Assembly: GCF_037975245.1 (NCBI RefSeq)
Contig: NC_092575.1
Span: 3,990,501 to 4,054,500, forward strand
Direction of reading: 5' to 3'
DNA: 64,000 nucleotides
From: Apostichopus japonicus
Lineage: Eukaryota; Echinodermata; Holothuroidea; Aspidochirotida; Stichopodidae
Numbering within the stretch: position 1 is the stretch's first letter; every line of letters starts with the position of its first letter. A program made the translations under genes and the position numbers. This document shows, piece by piece, positions 18,301 to 62,300 of the stretch. The notes below the pieces were generated by a model. The model did not search any database, had not been told where the DNA came from, and was given only the letters and a program-made list of their open reading frames with translations.

Positions 18301-21300
18301 TACTGTTGGTTGTCAAGACAACAGAAAGACTGTCTCAGCTAGATCACTGGAGGACCTAGAACTTCATCAGACCGAACATCGTGAAAGTCCTACCGTAGTT
18401 CATACTTTTAGATTTCTGTGTGAAAGCTAGAACGACCCAAACAAACCATACAGGATAAACTTGTACAATGGCAAAACCATGAATATCGAAACAATAGATG
18501 ATGCAATTTGTTACCAGAGATCAATTGATGTGTGTGCTAGATTGAATCCACCACTTCCATACTTTTTACACACAGATGATGAAACCAATGCAAGTACATG
18601 CTGGTTACAGCATAATCACTTGAATTTACAGATCGTTAAGGAATTATTTCTTGATACCTTAATTAAACAAAATTGCATTTTTGCTACAATTATATTCTCC
18701 TGTGCTGGTGTGGTGATTGTGAGAATTTGAGGAAAGAGCTACAATAAACAAGAGCCCAAGGGCACTGTGGTTCCTTGCTTGGGGTATATGACAATACACA
18801 TAATATTATCAAGCAAGATTGGGCTGAAATAGTCCAAGTAATTGTGGTCCTACATGTTCCCATAAAGTAACCAACACCATAGCCAACACTTTCGTGATAA
18901 AAAAAAATCAACCTTGTCACACCTTGGCACTAGGAGTTATTGCATTAAATGTGTGAAAATTAACTTTGACCTCAAATAACTTCGCACACGAAGGTCAAAT
19001 GGGGGTCAACCCATTGACATTTATGATCAGAAGTTTCCTTTGACATCTGAAAATAGCATCGAAACTGTAAAAATCCCCAAAACACGGAAAGGTCACCAGA
19101 GGTCAAATTGAGGTCAAGGGTCACCCAGATGCGGGTCAACAATTGGATTACATTGAGGCAACTCCCAACCCTAACAGACATTTTGTTCTCAAGTTATTGC
19201 AAAAATACTAGTTTTTTATCATTAATTGACCTTTGGTGACCTTGTATCACATAACCGTTAAGTTTGAAAATGCTCCCCTATACCATTTGCAACTACTCCA
19301 AAAATATTAACCTTGTCACACCTTGGAACTGGGAGTTATTGCATTAAATGTCTGAAAATTAACTTTGACCTCATATAACTTCGCACACGAAGGTCACACG
19401 GGGGTCAACCCATTGACATTTATGATCAGAAGTTACCTTTGACATCTGAAAATAGCATCAAAACTGTAAAAATCCACAAAACACTAAAAAGGTCACCAGA
19501 GGTCAAATTGAGGTCAAGGGTCACCCAGATGTGGGTCGACAATTGGATTACATTGAAGCAACTCCCAACCCTAACGGACAATTTGTTCTCAAGTTATCGC
19601 AAAAAATACTAGTTTTTTATCATTAATTGACCTTTGGTGACCTCGGATCACATGACCGTTAAGTTTGAAAATATTCCCCTATACCATTTGCAACTTGTCT
19701 CAAAATATCAACTGTGTAACACCTTGGCACTGGGAGTTATTACACTAAATGTCTGAAAATTAACTTTGACCTCATATATAGTTAACATACAAAGGTCACC
19801 TTGGGTCAACTTATTGACATTTTTTATTGATGAGACCTAAATTAGAGCATCAAACTATAAAAATTCAAACAATTTTTTCTTTGCCCATTTTCTACCCCCA
19901 AAATACTAGTTTTTTGACATTAATTGACCTTTGGTGACCTCGGATCACATGACCGTTAAGTTTGAAAATATTCCCCTATACCATTTGCAACTTGTCCAAA
20001 AATATCAACCATGTCACACCTTGGAACTGGGAGTTGTTGCATTAAATGTCTGAAAATTAACTTTGACCTTGTATAACTTCGCACACGAAGGTTACACGGG
20101 TGTCAACCAATTGACATTTTTGATCGGAAGGTACCTTTGATATCCAAATCTAGCATCAAAACCAAACATTTTCTTTTTTGCTCGTTTCCTCCCAAAATAA
20201 GCACATTTTTTCTAATGTGACCTTTGACCTTGGTTTCAGATGTAGTTTAATCTCCTGATTCCAAAAAACAAAACGAAAAGTCTGTACAACCATCCTAACT
20301 CCGACCGAAAAACTTTGACCCCATATAACTTCGCACATAAAGGTCACACGGGGTCAACCTATTGACATTTATGATCAGAAGGTACCTTTGACATCTGAAA
20401 ATAGCATTGAAACTGTAAAAATCCCAAAAACACGAAAAGGTCACCAGAGGTCAAATTGAGGTCAAGGGTCACCCAGATGCGGGTCGACAATTGGATTACA
20501 TTGAGGCAACTCCCAACCCTAACGGACATTTCGTTCTCAAGTTATTGCAAAAATACTAGTTTTTTATCATTAATTGACCTTTGGTGACCTCGGATCATAT
20601 GACCGTTAAGTTTGAAAATGCTCCCCTAACCAGTTCACAACTTGTCCCAAAATATCAATCTTGTCGCACATTGGCACTGGGAGTTATTGCAGTTTTAATA
20701 TTTTCAGTTTTTGGACCATAACTGACCTTTGGTGACCTTTGTGGGCACCAAAAACAATAGGGCACACCTTCTCCATATGGCGGATCTATAGTCCAAGTTT
20801 GGCCTCAATCCAACATTCCCTTATTGAGATAGAGCGTACCCAAGCAAGTGTCACAGATGCACACACACACATACATACATACATACATACACACATACAT
20901 ACATACATACACACACACATACGCCAACCTGACTGCATAGGTTCCTTTTGCTAAAGCAAGGAACCAAAAATTGGCAATTTTGACCTTTAGAAGTTAAAAT
21001 GTCAGTGCAACCCAACCATGTTGGGTGAAAAAGTTTTGAAAAGAGCATGAAATTTTTGGTGGCTACACTAGACAAAAATACATGCTTGACTGTCAAATTT
21101 GTAAAGAAACTGTTGTCTCCTGATTAAGACATTAACACAGGCATGTAACCTTTTTCCTCAAGTAAAAAAATATGAGCTAAAACTAGTTTTCTCTCAGTAG
21201 TGTTACCTCAGGGTTATGTTTACATTTTCATCCGCATTGTTCACCTATGGGTATTATGCACAACACTAAACCTCCATCACAACTATGAAATTTCACAGAA

Positions 21301-50122: not shown

Positions 50123-50416
50123 CAGGCGCGTAGCCAGGAATTTGCCAAGGGAGGGGCGAAACTGTAGATTCGGCATTGCAAACTATCTAAGCGTAGCGCC
50201 ATCATAATTGGCGCGAAGCGTACAAGAAAATTTTGGTTGAAAATGCCTCCCAGATCGCTGAAAATGGCACTTCCCAGGCCTTGTAAGTTGCATCTTAGCA
50301 TTTTCTCTTTTGAAAATACTAGCGATATCATAAAAACATTAAAAATAAAAATAACAAATATGCTCAAGGGAGGGGGCGGCTGCCCCCTTCGCTCCCCCCC
50401 CTTGGCTACGCGCCTG
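50123..50416. mobile_element. hAT-type MITE with 8-bp target duplication
   Basis: Left end CAGGCGCGTAGCCAGG; right end inverse of CAGGCGCGTAGCCAAGG. Perfect CGTCAATA duplications lie at 50115-50122 and 50417-50424. The 294-bp body encodes nothing. Confidence 0.93.
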
Positions 50417-50668: not shown

Positions 50669-50873
50669 ATATATCTTCTCGGCTTTTTGGCTAAGATCAT
50701 GTGTAGTATCTGTTCCCTTCGAGGGGGATCGTGATACACACTTGACGATGATCACACAGTCACAGTCTCGATGCAAGGGGACTGGGGTTGAGAGCGGATC
50801 AGTCGTTCGCTTGTTTGGTGTTTCGTGCCCAGGTTCTTTCCTAGGTGACTTTTCTTAATAAGTATATATCTTC
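50669..50873 (+). mobile_element. U2 snRNA-headed element (SINEU-like or chimeric U2 pseudogene)
   Basis: Bases 50671-50715 match the 5' end of metazoan U2 snRNA at about 41 of 45 positions from memory. The match includes CTTCTCGG, the GGCTAAGATCA segment and the branch-site-pairing GTGTAGTATCTGTTC. From 50716 on the sequence departs from U2. It reads into an unrelated body with small hairpins (CCCTTCGAGGG; CAGTC..GACTG; CCCAGG..CCTAGG) and ends near a TTTTC. No Sm site (AATTTTTGG) is present, so it is unlikely to be functional U2. ATATATCTTC flanks it at 50669-50678 and 50864-50873, a possible target duplication. Confidence 0.65.
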
Positions 50874-52738: not shown

Positions 52739-53795
52739 TAGTGGCGGAGCGTTCATATATACAGTCAGGGCGGATGCCCCCCCCCCTGACGGACTCAAAT
52801 GGACTGCTGGCGCCCTTTTCAGCTTTTCACTACTTTTCACTTATTCGCGATTATTGACTATTTTATTGCGCTCTCATATACCTATTGACATTTGTCATAT
52901 TCTGTTGTTGTAATTTTCCGACACAATGGCGACGACACCTATTTATTCTCCGTTTATCTGCAAATTAGCAGGGCCCGGAAAGGGTCATTTAAGGGCGGCG
53001 GAACCGGGGAGGCACAGGGGCACGTGCCCCCCACTTTTCCTCAGGTTAAAAATGTGCCCTTTTTCTACATAAAAATTGAGGTGTCTCAAGTTAGCAAGAG
53101 GCCAGGGAACCAGAATGAACACTCGGGAAGGGCCGTTTCCGGCCATCTGAGGGGTTTGTAAAACCAAAAATTTTCTTGTACGCTCCGCGCCAACCGATGG
53201 TGGCGCTCCGCTCAGATAGTCGTGTATACAACTTTCAAATCCTGGCTACGCCCCTGACTTCTAATGAATTTCTGTGGGTCAAACTCAAAGCTATTTCGAA
53301 TGGAAAAAAATTGTTAAGATATTATCAAGAAATAAACTCTTATTCGGAAGATTCCTACATTAGCAACTAGCATGATTTCACCTCGTTTTTACTCAAAACA
53401 AAACTTGTTCCTTGTTTCCCAATTTGCGCATTGGATATTGCAGTGCTAATATGCATATTTTCCTTGAGGGTGGGGGTGGGGGGGGGAGCGTTGATGGAGT
53501 GATGTGTATACGCAAATAAGATAATACAATAAGAGTTATAAAGGGTACTAAATATAAGGCTGTATCATTCCCATCGAATTTCTGCAAAGTGCCCTTCGAT
53601 GTCGGTGCCCCCCCCCAGATTAAAAGTGCTTCCGCCGCCCTTGGGGTCATTACCTGCAATCTAGGGAGTATCTTTATTCAAAAAATTTCTGTACGCTCCG
53701 TGCCAACCTGTGGTGGCGCTCCGCTTAGATAGTGTCGAAAGCGCCCCTACAGACCATTCTTGCCCCCCTGACCAATACCCCTAGCTCCGCCACTG
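52739..53795. mobile_element. middle MITE of the nest
   Basis: Left TAGTGGCGGAGC, right inverse CAGTGGCGGAGC. Flanking octamers CCCTTTCT (52731-52738) and CCCTTACT (53796-53803) differ at one base. It lies wholly inside the outer element and is itself split by 52990-53643. Confidence 0.85.
52990..53643. mobile_element. inner MITE of the nest
   Basis: Left TAAGGGCGGCGGAACC, right inverse CAAGGGCGGCGGAAGC. Perfect GGGTCATT duplications lie at 52982-52989 and 53644-53651. It is the youngest insertion by position. It carries another copy of the GTACGCTCCGCGCCAACC module at about 53175. Confidence 0.9.
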
Positions 53796-54734
53796 CCCTT
53801 ACTACACTCAAAAACGTCTTTGCGAGTACACTACGAGTAATTGCTACTCTCTTAAAACACCATCGAATATACAAATTACAATGTTTTTACAGACTTTTAC
53901 GTGCAATATGAGAAATTGCAGGCGTGAGACCCATATTTTCGGGCTAGGTATTCGCAGCATAAAACACTCGGCAAGTGCCGTTTCCGGCCATCTGGGGATT
54001 TGAAAAAAACCCAAATTTTCTTGTACGCTCCGCGCCAACCGATGGTGGCGCTCCGCTTAGATAGTATCCATGCACACATTAGCCCCCCCAATAATTTTTC
54101 CGTTCCGCCGCGCCTGGAGTGATACATAGTACTCCCAGTAAGCTTCCGGACTTTGGAATTGTACTTCACCTCGGGCAAAAATACTGGTCTGGATGAAATC
54201 TACTTAAACTTGGGTATTGGATGATCATATTTGAACCATAGAACAACCAAAACAATGAGTGGTCCTCAAAACTCTACCCATCCCGTTAACAAAGATCCAA
54301 CATCAATACAATGCCTTAGGACTTTCACCTATTGATATGGTCACCTCATGTTAGGTAGTGGTCTCTGAAGGGCATGGGTGTACCTATTACACCAGTCTCT
54401 GTGTTATTCTATGAACACCCATCGAAATGAGAAGGCTTGAATTTTCAACACATAGTTTGTGGTTTCAAATGAGCCTCTATTGGCTTCCTAACCCTTGGGA
54501 AATACTCAACTAAATTTTAAAGTTAACAATCTGGTGGAGAGGGAGGGGGGTTTGGCCACACACTTAGAGGGCTAATGAGATATATGGCTTGACCTAAAAG
54601 TTTTCTGACTAAATGGATCTCGTATGCATTCTGTACCAATAAAAGGGCACCTATTTGAATTGCCTGTATAGTTGTAACTTACAACAGAAGGGCGCTTTGT
54701 TAATTACAAATTTCGTATGCATGAAGGCATTTTC

Positions 54735-56128: not shown

Positions 56129-56320
56129 CTAAGCATTGGCTATATTCCTCTGGTTAAAGAAGTTCACGTGATTATCCAATTTGACCCTCCTCATAAAGCG
56201 TTGGTGGAGGTTCTGCCTAAGTTGGGCTCTCTGAGAGTCCAGACACTGGTGGCTGGCGTGGAATTCGTCAATTTCTTCCGGTGCTAGCTTGCAGTCTTCG
56301 TCACAGAATAGATGCGTCTC
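56129..56320 (-). CDS. ggnbp2: ggnbp2 last coding exon
   Basis: Acceptor GTCTCCAG before 56320, phase 0. It encodes 63 residues (ETHLFCDEDCKLAPEEIDEF to FFNQRNIANA) and TAG. The helix-forming core aligns with the vertebrate ISQDEIQSF..REQYRQHL segment; the final about 10 residues differ. The 3' UTR follows. Confidence 0.93.
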   Translation of the reverse strand, partial: ETHLFCDEDCKLAPEEIDEFHASHQCLDSQRAQLRQNLHQRFMRRVKLDNHVNFFNQRNIANA

Positions 56321-59300
56321 CTGGAGACCAGAAAGAGAGAAAAGGACGAACGTTGAAGATATGCGTGTGATTGCTATGCAGCCTGTCACAGACACAACCG
56401 AAACAATGCTTTCCAAAGTGTCTAGTGTGTGAGAACGGGACGAATATTGAAGACATGCGTGTGATTGCTATGTAGCCTGTCACAGATAGAACAATGAACA
56501 ATGCTTTACAAAGTGTCCAGAGTGTGTCAACCACAGTTATTTCTTGGTTGGAATGTACTAATGTGCATGATTTAAATGTTTCTGATGCATGAAAAGAGAT
56601 CCACTACCAAGAAAGTAGCATATTCTTCAAAGCTTCCATGTCATTCTATTATAGGGATTGACGAAAAGCAAATAATACTACAGAGAAAACTGGATATTAT
56701 AGTAACTTCTCTAGACTGTATAAATTTACCAAAGGAAGTCTGGATAACTTAGCCGGATAGATCCCTTAAGGTAATCAAGAAAATGATGCTTCTCGTGAAA
56801 CGAAAGAGGGAAGGGTGGGGTAGGGAGGGAGGGAGGGAGGGAGGGAGGGAGGGAGGGAGGGAGGGAGGGAGGGAGGGAGGGAGGGAGGGAGGGAGGGAGG
56901 GAGGGAGGGAGGGAGGGAGGGAGGGAGGGAGGGAGGGAGGGAGGGAGGGAGGGAGGGAGGGAGGGAGGGAGGGAGGGAGGGAGGGAGGGAGGGAGGGAGG
57001 GAGGGAGGGAGGGAGGGAGGGAGGGAGGGAGGGAGGGAGGGAGGGAGGGAGGGAGGGAGGGAGGGAGGGAGGGAGGGAGGGAGGGAGGGAGGGAGAAGAA
57101 TGGGTTCCTGCAATGTATTTGGGTAGATTATATCACAAGGTTCGTTTCCTTTTTTATCATCTTGTTGATATCACAAGGTTTGTTTCCTTTTTTATCATCT
57201 TGTTGATATCACAAGGTTTGTTTCCTTTTTTATCATCTTGTTGATTTGTTCTTATAACACACAGCAATTGGAGAAATACATAGGCCAGGCTCCTGTCAGT
57301 CACCCATACATTACTAGTCCTGCACACAGTATGATAACAAACCCATCATAATGGTAACAATATCATCATAGAGATTATAGCGGACTATCTCTCCCTCTCT
57401 GCCCACCTGTCCGCTTCCCTCATAAAGACTACTACTATAAGGATGCACTGATTATAGCATTTGTTTTTCCCTCTTTAAAGCAGCATTTTGTGTTTTGTCG
57501 CCGTTTTCTTCTTTTTTGACATGTCCATCGAGTTTTTTACATATATCAATCACAAAACAGCAAACTAAGATATTAGCCAAGTTTTTCCCTGCCAACAACG
57601 TTAATTGGCGAGTAACTAAGGATATTTGCAGATAATGAGAATAGTGTCCATGAAAAATTCCATACTTAAAATTAATCGCATACAGTTCCCTTAAACCCAC
57701 TAGTTTGAATTCAACCAATCAGAGATGCAGGTTTAGTTATGAGCCGTTGCTAAAAATAGATTCAAGACTTTGCGTTGGTACAACCAGGGAGTGGTTACCG
57801 AACTCCCTGGTACAACTGCCATGTAGACTGTACACAAATCAAGCATGGTGTTGTATTACGTATTGGTCAATGACATTCGTAGTGCTTAAATATTCATATT
57901 ATGGGCGAGGTTTATTGGGATCCCAACGGAAAATATCTTGGAGAAAAACAAAGTTGAAAGTTGCAAATTTTTCGACTTTTATGCCACCATTTGAAGTAAG
58001 ATTTAAAAAGATAAGCTAGTTATGTATGTTGTTATGGCATAGTGGAGTCAGTGAGGTTGAGAAAAATCAAAGAAAAGGACTCAAAATGCTGCTTTAATAC
58101 AATTACCTCTAACATGTCTTGGAGTGTGTGTGTCCAGCCTACTGCATGTCTAAGCTGCCTCTCGTTAGAACACCGACAGATCTTGGCGACTTGATCACTC
58201 TCATAATTTGCGCTGCCCTGTAACATAAAAAAAATTTATATATATATATATATATAAAAAATAAAAATGATAGAAAAATAAAAGATATTAAGGAAAACTA
58301 TGCATTCCTGGTGAGATCTTGACCAGATTTATGACTGCAGTTCTCAAAAGGTGTATGTTGAAAGGAGGAAGACAATAATAATAGTAAGAATTATTACAAT
58401 AACAGCAACAATAATAATCCTAATAATATGTGGACTAAAATGCTAACTTGGAAACTGACAAGAATATTCCAAGTGACTTTTGGGAGAGAATTGGACTTGA
58501 GCAAGTGTCCTGAATGATTCAATCCTTGAGCTAAAGAAGACTGTTTTGGTTTACATTATGGATGCTGGCCAAAAACTATATTGGTTCTTTCTCTTGAATT
58601 TTTGCATTTGAGTGAGCACAAGATTTAAACTAATCAAGTAGAATATTTTGTCAATCACTTCAGACGTCTCAAAAACTATATTGATTCTTTCTCTTGAATT
58701 TTTGCATTTGAGTGAGTACAAGATTTAAACTAATCAAGTAGAATATTTTGTCAATCACTTCAGACGTCTCAGCCCTCATTAAACTGTTTTTTGTTGATAA
58801 TTCTCTGGAGGGATTACATGGGATATAATTATTAATTAAGTTGCATACTTTTCAGAGCATGACTAATCAACTTGAAATCTGATACAGTATAGAATAGTAT
58901 TTATTGAATAGTTGAATTGGAAAATTGACCAGATGACTGGACAACAATGTAATTAAACGTAGAGAAGTTGGGTTGTCCAATCACCATTCAGGTTCAGTTG
59001 ACTGACAAGATACACATTACATTGTCAGCAGCCTGTCAGCCAACAAAGGTCAGCAATGAAGAGTAAAACGGAGAAAACTTTGGTTGACAAATCACCATTC
59101 AGGTTCAGTTGACTGACAAGATACACATCACATGGTCAGGAGCCTGTCACCAATCAGGTTCAGTTGACTGACAAGATACACATTACGTGGTCAGGAACCT
59201 GTCACCAATCAGGTTCAGTTGACTGACAAGATACACATTACATGGTCAGGAGCCTGTCACCAATCACCATTCAGGTTCAGTTGACTGACTAGATACACAT

Positions 59301-62300
59301 TACATGGTCAGGAGCCTGTCACCAATCACCATTCAGGTTCAATTGACTGACAAGATACAAATTACATGGTCAGGAGCCTGTCACCAATCACCATTCAGGT
59401 TCAGTTGACTGACTAGATACACATTACATGGTCAGGAGCCTGTCACCAATCACCATTCAGGTTCAGTTGACTGACAAGATACACATTACATGGTCAGGAG
59501 CCTGTCACCAATCACAATTCAGGTTCAGTAAACTGACAAGATACACATTACATGGTCAGGAACCTGTCACCAATCACCATTCAAGTTCAGTTGACTGACA
59601 AGATACACATTACATGGTCAGGAGCCTGTCACCAATCACAATTCAGGTTCAGTAAACTGACAAGATACACATTACATGGTCAGGAGCCTGTCACCAATCA
59701 CAATTCAGGTTCAGTAAACTGACAAGATACACATCACATGGTCAGGAGCCTGTCACCAATCACAATTCAGGTTCAGTTGACTGACAAGATACACATTACA
59801 TGGTCAGGAACCTGTCACCAATCACCATTCAGGTTCAGTTGACTGACAAGATACACATTACATGGTCAGGAGCCTGTCACCAATCACCATTCAGGTTCAG
59901 TTGACTGACAAGATACACACTACGTTGTCAGGAGCCTGTCAGCCAACAAAGGTCAGCAATGTAGTAAAACATGCAGAACTTTGGTTGACCAATCACCATT
60001 CAGGTTCAGTTGACTAACAAGATACACATCACATGGTCAGGAGCCTGTCAGCCAATAAAGGTTAGTAAATGTGTAGTAAAAACAGAGAGAACTTTTATTG
60101 ACCAATCATCGGTTACAGGGATAAACGCTCACCTTGACCAGACACCCTGATGAGTTGGTTCTACTGTTAGAGGAACCGCTTGTTGATTTCTCCCCTTTAC
60201 AGTCAGCACATATCTCTCCCACGCCACAAGGTTCTTCTTCCTGGAACTCTCCTGTGTGCGAGTAACAACACCCAAAACACACAAAATAATTAAATTTACA
60301 ATGTAACATATTGATCTTCAAATTATACAATGCACAGGGAGCTGGTGAATAATTCAACCACTCCATAACAAGCTGACGTCACTTCTGGAATTCTCCTGTG
60401 TGCGAGTAACAACACCATATGATTTGTTTAGTCCATGTTTAAGCTTGACTCATTTAAAATTGACCGAAGCCTCAGTGTAGCTGAGTGTATTTAAGTTGCA
60501 AAATTTACATGGTAACATTTGATCTTCAAATTATACAATGCACAAGGGAGCTGGTAAATAACCTTTGCCAGATAATTGCAATTACAATTCTGCCCCTGAC
60601 TCTTACATACAAATGGCTATGACAGTGGTGGGTAACTATAGAGGGTATCGCTGGAATATTTTTCAAGAAACACCCTTTCCTAAAGCTTCTATCCTTCTCT
60701 GTAGACTAGCTTGAAACAATATATGTTGTGTGATTAAGCGCACAGGGATGTTAACATGCAATATACACCTGACTCTAGACTTCTAGTAGGGTGTCTTAGT
60801 TGATCAATCAATCTAATTCGAGTAAAACAAAGGTACTTTGGTAAAATCAACATGTATAATGCAACAAAACATCATGAAAGTAGGCCTTCTGGGTTGATTC
60901 TGGTGCTATTCAGTACTAGAATCTTTCAAACTTTTGCAATTATTTTTCCGGTTCCGAGTGTGATGTTGCTGTGACTTACCGCACATCGCTGGACGACCCT
61001 TATCTTCAACGCTGCCTTTGTCATTGTTGTTGGGCGTGTCGTGACGTTGTTGACCGTTGGTTAATACTTTGGTGGTCTTACCGTTGATGGCAGGCCCTTT
61101 AGGAATAGAAGCCTTGGGTTCTTCTTGGACAGATGTGGACAGACACTGAGGAAAGCAAAAGAGAAATCATCTTAGAAGCGAAAAATTTCAACGTGGACAT
61201 TTTTTAAAATCGATACTTTTGATACCCTGCAGTCATTTGAAAGATACTGTCAAAATAACTGTCCAATCTCCTACAAAAGTCCACATAGTTGGTGCTGAAA
61301 TTGACTTTAGAACCCAACAATGGAAAATAAGCAGGTGAGGTACCCATGATGAAATTAACTTGCATCTTTTGGGAACCTGTTACCTGATGGTTTTTCTTCT
61401 TGAGATATCATGCTTACAACGTTTCACAGTTTATTCTCTGACCAATATAACTCTACTAAAACAATAAAGCATTTGTTTCCCACTGATTTTAAATCCTTCC
61501 ATCCCGTTAATTTTTTTTAAAATCCTATCCGATTCTTACCTCACACGTGGTTTCATTTTCTTTTTCAGCCTCACAGCACCCATGCGGTTTCCGTTCTGTG
61601 GTTTCCGATTCTCCGGCCACTTCCGGTTTGGGGAGCGATTTGTTCTTCTTCCGGGCTTTCTTCCGCTGTTTCTTCTGTTCTCGTCTCTGCTGCCTCTCCT
61701 CATCCTCCTTGTTGATTTCTTGACAGATGAGTTCGATTTTACTCAAGCCGTGCTTCGCATCGAGAGCGACCTGTTTGGGAATTTGAAAAGAGGGGGATAA
61801 CAAAAATATTTGAGAATGCATTAAAAGCGGCAAAAAAACCATGGTCGCTACCACCGTAAACAGTTAGCAAACCAAAAATAATTGTTGACAAGAATCACAG
61901 GATAGTAATGAAGAGAGTCTGAACTTGATTCAGGTCTTTCCCTGTTTTGCACATCTTGTGCAAAAACCTTCCGTTCTCTCTGAAATGATCCCCCCAAAAA
62001 AATCAGGGTCTCGTTCACATTTTAGCAATGAATACAGGTTCACTATATTGCAAAATTTGAACTGGTAGTCCTAATGCCTCCTTATTACCTCTTATTACCC
62101 AAATCATCTAGTTAAAGGAACTTCTTAACAGCCATGCCTTTTATCAGGTCAAAGGTACCTACTTTTTTTTTTAACGTATTTTACGTAATATTACCGTTTT
62201 TAATCTCTTGTTTGTTATACCTCATATTGTACTTTCATAACCTCTTATTGTTTTGTTTTAAATCACATCCTATTGTATTTTTTATAACATCTTATTGCTT

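What the first reader, a model, noticed from the sequence alone, without database searches (positions are those of the whole stretch)
50669..50873. U2 snRNA 5' domain fused to an unrelated structured body
About 45 nt of U2 (through the branch-site-pairing segment) is nearly intact, then the sequence switches to a body with several short hairpins and no Sm site. A 10-bp ATATATCTTC flanks it. SINEs with snRNA-derived heads (SINEU) are known in a few vertebrates; a counterpart here would be unusual. It might instead be a divergent U2-like RNA, or template-switch debris.
Basis: partly seen in the sequence, partly recalled or inferred. Interest (0 to 1): 0.7.

Follow-up and report, generated by a model that had tools for sequence, protein, structure and literature searches.

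The report
U2-gene-targeting SINE in sea cucumber
This is one old copy of a small mobile DNA family that starts with the first 45 letters of the U2 splicing RNA; other copies of the family sit inside the animal's own U2 genes, which probably supply its promoter.

Summary
The element (window 50675-50863, TSD ATATATCTTC) belongs to a dispersed family: 1,663 body 31-mers (<=2 mismatches), 1,171 head-body junctions (<=1 mismatch), controls 0. The genome is an echinoderm by mitochondrial code; its statistics fit the Apostichopus japonicus assembly. The majority head equals this genome's U2 nt 1-45, including its U at nt 30. New part: young copies sit inside real U2 genes of the 645-bp tandem array, e.g. 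[U2 promoter][U2 1-45][body][AAAAAGT][ATCTGTTC = U2 38-45 again][U2 46-end]. LINE-1-like (Keno-like) LINEs use the same site. Sixteen places elsewhere are listed at 100% identity to a U2-resident copy. Of 19 exact SINE-end/U2-site junctions, 7 lie in U2 genes or a U2-like copy, 9 at the U2-head site of another SINE copy, 3 elsewhere. Best reading: a SINE transcribed from the U2 promoter and mobilised by U2-targeting LINEs, its head being its target gene's 5' part. Transcription and LINE partnership are inferred.

The parts
50669..50678 (+). 5' copy of the target-site duplication ATATATCTTC (last 4 bases also match U2 nt 5-8)
50675..50715 (+). U2-derived head: U2 nt 5-45 of this genome's own U2, 1 mismatch (nt 14)
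50704..50715 (+). TAGTATCTGTTC, U2 nt 34-45, spanning the U2 insertion site (nt 37/38); in other copies of the family this segment has received nested SINE insertions
50716..50863 (+). Family-specific SINE body, ending in the A-rich tail ..TTCTTAATAAGT (family majority: TTCTTAAAAAGT)
50864..50873 (+). 3' copy of the target-site duplication ATATATCTTC

Best explanation
The feature is an old, 5'-shortened, dispersed copy of a SINE family coupled to the U2 snRNA genes. SHOWN: copies of the body are inserted in U2 genes of the tandem array at U2 nt 37/38, downstream of the same U2 5' flank that intact units carry, with the following U2 bases (nt 38-45 or 38-53) present twice; U2-resident copies are near-identical to many dispersed copies; dispersed copies start at or inside U2 +1, end in AAAAAGT(A), and about half of those examined show TSDs of 8 bp or more; the same U2 site is used by LINE-1-like LINEs with open frames; U2 heads of older dispersed copies are themselves hit at the same nucleotide. 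INFERRED: U2-resident copies are transcribed from the U2 promoter as [U2 1-45 | body | U2 38-...]; the RT of a U2-targeting Keno-like LINE copies that RNA from the A-rich end; the cDNA goes back to U2 genes (the head then serving as homology to the upstream half of U2), or to U2 heads of older copies, or by relaxed targeting elsewhere. Dispersed copies such as the window's lack the promoter and would be dead.
For: Copy number 1,663 body / 1,171 head-body junctions, controls 0. Majority head identical to the genome's own U2 nt 1-45, including its U30. U2-gene insertions: C16:31006770, 31021632, 31059295, 31132312, 31133755, 31134553, and a U2-like copy C20:14906454. They differ in structure: full-length copies with three body alleles (CCCTTAGGG, CCCCTCGGG, CCCCTAGGG), and 5'-truncated copies at 31006770 and 31134553 with U2 nt 38-53 duplicated, so most look like separate TPRT events. 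Four SINE-bearing units differ from the empty unit at 1, 2, 1 and 1 of 645 positions once the insert is taken out. 16 places outside the array are listed at 100% (rounded) over 191-194 bases to a U2-resident copy. None of the 16 dispersed copies with a readable head printed carries the U2 5' flank. No A- or B-box better than shuffles (496 and 497 of 500 shuffles as good), and T-runs at consensus positions 15, 150 and 180 would hinder Pol III. U2-resident LINE L061 with open ORF1 and ORF2: AP-type endonuclease and RVT_1 over Pfam's cut-offs, zf-RVT just below (26.2 of 27.5 bits); best PDB relative human L1 ORF2p, E 4e-88.
Against: No RNA data. The SINE body shares no significant similarity with the last (up to 500) bases of the U2-resident LINEs beyond an A-rich end, nor with the LINE parts searched (best 33 bases at 76%, E 0.026 and 0.066), so the partner LINE rests on the shared site only. 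Dispersed target sites are not U2-like upstream of the nick; only the first bases after AAAAAG are biased (T 62, A 62, T 47 of 71), and part of that may belong to the element. In one search, 38 rows gave no TSD of 8 bp or more, against 39 that did. The U2 promoter motif was not identified: array and C15 U2 flanks align poorly. Two U2-resident full-length copies (31059295, 31132312) share one allele and may descend from one insertion. Residence in U2 genes does not by itself show that these copies are the sources. 3 of the 19 exact junctions are at neither U2 nor a SINE head.
Confidence: 0.78

Rival explanations
1. A conventional SINEU-type SINE: dispersed copies are transcribed on their own (an unrecognised internal promoter), and the U2-resident copies are only landing sites of a U2-targeting LINE machinery.
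For: More than a thousand dispersed copies; U2-resident junctions are few (6 exact ones followed by U2 in the array); U2 insertion could be guided by homology of the head.
Against: No A/B box better than shuffles and T-runs inside; 16 places match a U2-resident copy at 100%; majority head identical to the species' U2.
Confidence: 0.12
2. On origin only: the U2 head was first captured by a template jump of a LINE reverse transcriptase (as in U6/L1 chimeras), giving a dispersed U2-headed SINE; only later did copies enter U2 genes, the head joining the target by homology.
For: snRNA/LINE chimeras exist in mammals (PMC13174262, passages), and R2 elements with U12 snRNA or tRNA at the 5' end exist (PMC3414825 abstract). 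L109 shows insertion of a whole head into a U2-like copy. Full-length U2-resident copies keep the head boundary at nt 45, while 5'-truncated ones join at nt 53, as expected if the head is carried in the RNA.
Against: The head ends at nt 45, where an 8-base duplication of U2 nt 38-45 would end, and such a duplication is seen for a 5'-truncated LINE (L042) and a 5'-truncated SINE in an old head (L104). No alternative head or fixed body-only form in 20 sampled copies.
Confidence: 0.25
3. A U2-like functional RNA or an exapted regulatory RNA at this locus.
For: Rfam U2 hit above gathering; the family majority sequence folds well (z -3.11).
Against: Only part of U2 nt 1-45; no Sm site seen; branch-site segment predicted to pair with the body in the majority sequence; TSD and more than a thousand copies.
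Confidence: 0.02
4. A one-off U2 retropseudogene or template-switch debris.
For: TSD and 5' truncation are typical of retropseudogenes.
Against: The same head-body fusion occurs 1,171 times within 1 mismatch.
Confidence: 0.01

Closest known systems
SINEU (SINEs with U1/U2 snRNA-derived heads, Kojima 2015, doi 10.1093/gbe/evv100; paper not held; content recalled and seen only through citing papers)
   Same: Short non-coding retroposon with the 5' part of U2 as head, a non-snRNA body, dispersed copies.
   Different: Reported from crocodilians (recalled; PMC8010984, passage, names SINEU and SINE28 together for avian, crocodilian and mammalian genomes). Here an echinoderm, with copies inside the host's real U2 genes and nested in U2 heads of older copies. 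Whether the SINEU paper discusses U2-gene insertion could not be checked.
R2/R1 SIDEs of Drosophila (PMC3414825, abstract and Discussion read)
   Same: Short non-autonomous elements inserted site-specifically in a multicopy RNA gene, relying on cotranscription with that gene and on the site-specific LINE's TPRT.
   Different: SIDEs are internally deleted R2/R1 pieces with a 5' ribozyme, inserted in 28S genes. This element keeps the host-gene head, is not recognisably made of the LINE parts searched, and has over a thousand dispersed copies.
Keno and Utopia, U2 snRNA gene-specific LINEs (PMC4640811, passages read)
   Same: Insertion at the same place in U2 (paper: downstream U2 starts at nt 39; here 38 or 39, ambiguous by one base); Keno has an APE endonuclease, as LINE L061 does.
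   Different: Autonomous; the element here is a SINE. Utopia has a restriction-like endonuclease; L061 has an AP-type one.

Membership tests
SINE (general) | Short, non-coding, dispersed in many copies with target-site duplications and a constant 3' end | tested here: met
   About 190 bp; 1,663 / 1,171 places; TSD 8-23 bp in 39 rows, none of 8 bp or more found in 38 rows; end TTCTTAAAAAGT
SINE (general) | Internal Pol III promoter | tested here: not met
   A-box and B-box best matches no better than in 496 and 497 of 500 shuffles; a motif test only, and snRNA-headed SINEs need not have one
SINEU | Head derived from U1 or U2 snRNA | tested here: met
   Majority head = own U2 nt 1-45
SINEU | Mobilised by a Tx1-clade LINE (recalled for crocodilian SINEU) | tested here: inconclusive
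   Same U2 site as L1-like APE LINEs, but no shared 3' sequence; no tree made
SINEU | Sequence homology of the body to crocodilian SINEU | not testable with these tools
   No SINEU sequence available; Repbase not on hand
R2/R1 SIDE | Internally deleted derivative of the site-specific LINE | tested here: not met
   No significant match of the body to LINE A (whole) or to the 5'/3' parts of other U2-resident LINEs that were read; best E 0.026; middles of the other LINEs not read
R2/R1 SIDE | Site-specific residence in, and cotranscription with, a multicopy RNA gene | tested here: inconclusive
   Residence shown; cotranscription not testable here
Keno (for LINE L061, not for the SINE) | U2 insertion at nt ~39 with APE endonuclease | tested here: met
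   clade assignment by tree not done
Utopia (for LINE L061) | Restriction-like endonuclease | tested here: not met
   ORF2 has Exo_endo_phos at its N-terminus and no other endonuclease hit
Functional U2 snRNA | Full U2 with Sm site and 3' stem-loops | tested here: not met
   Only nt 5-45 present in the window copy

The most novel reading that the evidence does not exclude
A target-coupled, Pol II-driven class of SINE: a body of about 150 nt that parasitises U2 snRNA genes. Its U2 head comes from its own target and works as a homology arm: each return to a U2 gene puts the body back behind an intact U2 promoter, and host concerted evolution keeps head and target identical. The dispersed copies have no promoter, but their heads carry the U2 target site and act as extra landing pads for new insertions. 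This would be a direct route by which SINEs gain and keep snRNA heads.
Probability: 0.48. Interest if true: 0.8.

Novelty: new variant of a known kind. Interest (0 to 1): 0.68.

Why it matters
How snRNA-headed SINEs, which lack a recognisable Pol III promoter, are transcribed and how SINEs gain their heads are open points as far as I know. Here source-like copies, target, candidate machinery and products lie in one genome: U2 genes bearing the SINE, U2-specific LINEs with open frames, near-identical dispersed copies and nested insertions in U2 heads. The model can be tested by RNA 5'/3' ends. Practical point: dispersed copies pass Rfam's U2 threshold (6 of 8 tested loci), so the 996 'splicing' snRNAs and the 159,644 bp of SINEs annotated in the published A. 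japonicus genome (PMC10344927, section 14 read) may be distorted by this family; 1,663 copies of up to about 190 bp would be up to about 0.3 Mb. That link was not tested against the published annotation.

Tried and rejected
Rejected: single pseudogene; Pol III SINE on motif grounds; body derived from the U2-resident LINE parts read; the sequence before the junction in L102 as a LINE 3' end (no LINE found in 5 kb; a 310-codon open frame that is not LINE-like lies upstream); an older body-only form (none in 20 sampled copies). Searches for the element or its body in plasmids, viral contigs and prokaryote contigs gave nothing, as expected. Rfam at a loose threshold listed only chance-level matches for the body. 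While checking this report I dropped my earlier reading that units 31133755 and 31134553 are one insertion copied by unequal exchange: their inserts differ.

Literature: the listings showed me no paper on a SINE resident in U2 genes or on an echinoderm SINEU. Several listings were capped (20 of 374 papers, 15 of 37, 12 of 4,227), I opened only ten papers, mostly passages, the library lacks most subscription papers, and the SINEU paper itself is not held.

Not answered, machine busy: DNA search with the L102 flank, Pfam COX1 in the own genome, LINE ORF2 copies, count of the young allele, count of intact U2 units. Busy at first and answered later: 6, 19, 20, 24, 35, 39, 43, 46, 47, 49, 58, 61.

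Full report
1. What is at the coordinates. Window 50669-50873 holds ATATATCTTC, then U2 nt 5-45 (50675-50715, one difference; its first four bases are also the end of the duplication), a body (50716-50863) ending TTCTTAATAAGT, and ATATATCTTC again. Rfam calls U2 above gathering, but only nt 1-45 align convincingly. BLAST finds no second copy in the window.

2. It is a family. A search of the window's own genome (G000, 671,581,487 bases, 35 contigs) scored 40 of 2,431 candidates and returned 47 matches at 87-100% identity, the majority running over about query 7-197. A 31-mer of the body with up to 2 mismatches occurs 857 + 806 = 1,663 times and a 25-mer across the head-body junction with 1 mismatch 603 + 568 = 1,171 times; reversed controls 0. 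The two counts use different lengths and mismatch limits and are not directly comparable. I took every fifth of the first 100 exact body places (20 of the 100 listed): 15 carry U2 head sequence (three of them, L084, L092 and L094, truncated or altered within it) and 5 are truncated inside the body at different points, so no second head type showed up.

3. Anatomy. The majority sequence of 36 elements has a head identical to nt 1-45 of this genome's U2. That U2 has U at nt 30 (AUCAUGUG), where the Rfam consensus has A; the SINE shares the U, so the head comes from this lineage's own U2. TSDs of 8-23 bp were found in 39 rows (two of them the same site in L024); rows dropped there: 38 without a TSD of 8 bp or more, 117 partial matches ending short of the tail, 17 duplicates, 9 without recognisable tail, 10 in U2 or nested. 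Of the 16 dispersed young copies with a readable head, none carries the 5' flank of U2. The majority RNA folds at -69.6 kcal/mol (z -3.11, 0 of 200 shuffles as low); the U2 branch-site segment is predicted to pair with the first part of the body. The window copy itself is not clearly better than shuffles.

4. The real U2 genes. Searching U2 in the genome gave 46 scored places (a lower bound): 42 on C16 near 31.0-31.16 Mb, many spaced 645 bp apart, and four on C15. Inside that array lie SINE copies: U2 5' flank, U2 nt 1-45, body, AAAAAGT, then ATCTGTTC (U2 nt 38-45 again), then U2 nt 46 onward. With the insert taken out, the units at 31132312, 31059295, 31133755 and 31134553 differ from the empty unit at 1, 2, 1 and 1 of 645 positions, so their 5' flank is that of intact genes. 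The inserts are not one copy multiplied: 31132312 and 31059295 share the allele CCCTTAGGG, 31133755 has CCCCTCGGG, 31021632 has CCCCTAGGG, and 31134553 is a 5'-truncated SINE with U2 nt 38-53 duplicated.

5. Site specificity. The 20-mer TTCTTAAAAAGTATCTGTTC (SINE end plus U2 nt 38-45) occurs 19 times exactly and 11 times with one mismatch; reversed control 1. I read the 19 exact places and not the 11 others. Seven continue as U2 nt 46 onward: six in the C16 array and one in a diverged U2-like copy on C20. Nine continue as a SINE body, i.e. the insertion lies at the U2 site in the head of another SINE copy (at C2:4029648 the older copy's upstream head part is missing; at C5 the older body is a variant). 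Three are neither (C11, and two related places on C23). Several are plainly separate events: L107 is a 5'-truncated SINE with ATCTGTTCTTTTCAGC duplicated, just after a LINE 3' end; L108 carries a full-length body and a second, 5'-truncated body in one U2 gene; L104 is a 5'-truncated body in an old SINE head; L109 has the whole head inserted in the U2-like copy.

6. Age and source. With a U2-resident copy as query, 40 of 2,789 candidates were scored; 16 places outside the array are listed at 100% (rounded) over 191-194 bases. In one search the U2-resident copies group with L017, L021, L029 and L033 by shared changes; one search shows this subfamily to be the least diverged seen. The window copy is an older one (5.2% from the majority sequence).

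7. The machinery. LINEs occupy the same place in U2. L061 (C16:31109700-31115100) has 5' junction after U2 nt 30 and 3' junction at ATCTGTTC, an ORF1 of 409 aa with a zinc-knuckle match and an ORF2 of 1,141 aa (as listed, from a TTG) with AP-type endonuclease and reverse transcriptase over Pfam's cut-offs and zf-RVT just below its cut-off; the best solved relative is human LINE-1 ORF2p. Other array loci carry ORF1s at 100% (L043, L057), 99% (L038), 45-46% (L034, L041) and 40% (L035, L060) identity to it, so at least three families. PMC4640811 (passages) says Keno, an APE LINE, and Utopia share their 3' U2 flank, with downstream U2 starting at nt 39; the site here is 38 or 39, ambiguous because the base A is shared. 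I therefore call the LINEs Keno-like; no tree was made. Their last (up to 500) bases do not resemble the SINE body except for an A-rich end.

8. Mechanism. No A- or B-box stands out (496 and 497 of 500 shuffles as good) and the consensus has T-runs at 15, 150 and 180. The simplest engine is the U2 promoter of SINE-bearing units. Reverse transcription would begin at the A-rich end next to the U2 sequence, which would fit the end AAAAAGT(A) and the TA-biased flank (T 62, A 62, T 47 of 71 dispersed rows; of 86 rows, 10 without recognisable tail and 5 in U2 or SINE heads were set aside). Full-length copies in U2 keep the head boundary at nt 45 whereas two 5'-truncated ones join at nt 53; this suggests that the head travels in the RNA and joins the upstream half of U2 by homology. 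Upstream of the nick dispersed sites do not look like U2, so targeting away from U2 is loose. None of this has been measured.

9. Organism. Contig C35 is 16,099 bp and its COX1 reads properly with the echinoderm code (table 9); table 5 puts K where COX1 normally has N (recalled), and table 2 breaks the frame. The 671.58 Mb in 35 contigs, with C16 of 46.04 and C23 of 18.20 Mb, are close to the Apostichopus japonicus assembly (671.60 Mb, 23 chromosomes of 18.21-46.02 Mb, 34 scaffolds; PMC10344927, abstract, passages and section 14 read). The species name is my inference from these numbers.

10. Place among known things. It meets the defining feature of a SINEU that I could test, and it works like the Drosophila R2/R1 SIDEs without being recognisably an internally deleted LINE. 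Residence in the host's U2 genes and nesting in its own heads I did not see described in the listings, several of them capped; the SINEU paper itself could not be read.

Noticed in passing
G000:C16 ~31.0-31.16 Mb (L034-L061, L107, L108): U2 snRNA tandem array (645-bp unit) with at least three families of Keno-like LINEs, one copy (L061) with open ORF1 and ORF2 and near-identical further copies.
   Followed up: partly
L002, L021, L024, L067, L085, L089 (not L013, L100): Dispersed SINE copies exceed Rfam's U2 gathering score in 6 of 8 loci tested, so automatic annotation can call them U2 genes.
   Followed up: partly
G000:C5:22560163-22560907; C21:13176581-13176969; C16:38409884-38410254; C10:1740093-1740337: Tandem clusters of the SINE, in part nested at the U2-head site, in part sharing a target-site duplication.
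   Followed up: partly
window 50123-50416: Stretch with 14-bp inverted ends just upstream of the SINE, part of which has diverged relatives on the other strand at 53125-53220, 53681-53733 and 53970-54065; looks like a small DNA transposon.
   Followed up: no
window 56195-56279: ARAGORN tRNA-Gln (ctg) prediction of 85 bases; may be a tRNA pseudogene or SINE head.
   Followed up: no
window 56822-57095: Perfect (AGGG)68.5 microsatellite in a stretch with strong G skew.
   Followed up: no
window 58955-60108: Minisatellite block with 62-bp unit and 124-bp and 186-bp multiples.
   Followed up: no
window 18901-19822: 2.3 copies of a 401-bp tandem repeat.
   Followed up: no
G000:C23:13391960 and 13495889 (L110, L111): Two related stretches 104 kb apart that hold the same decayed SINE copy, probably a segmental duplication.
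   Followed up: no
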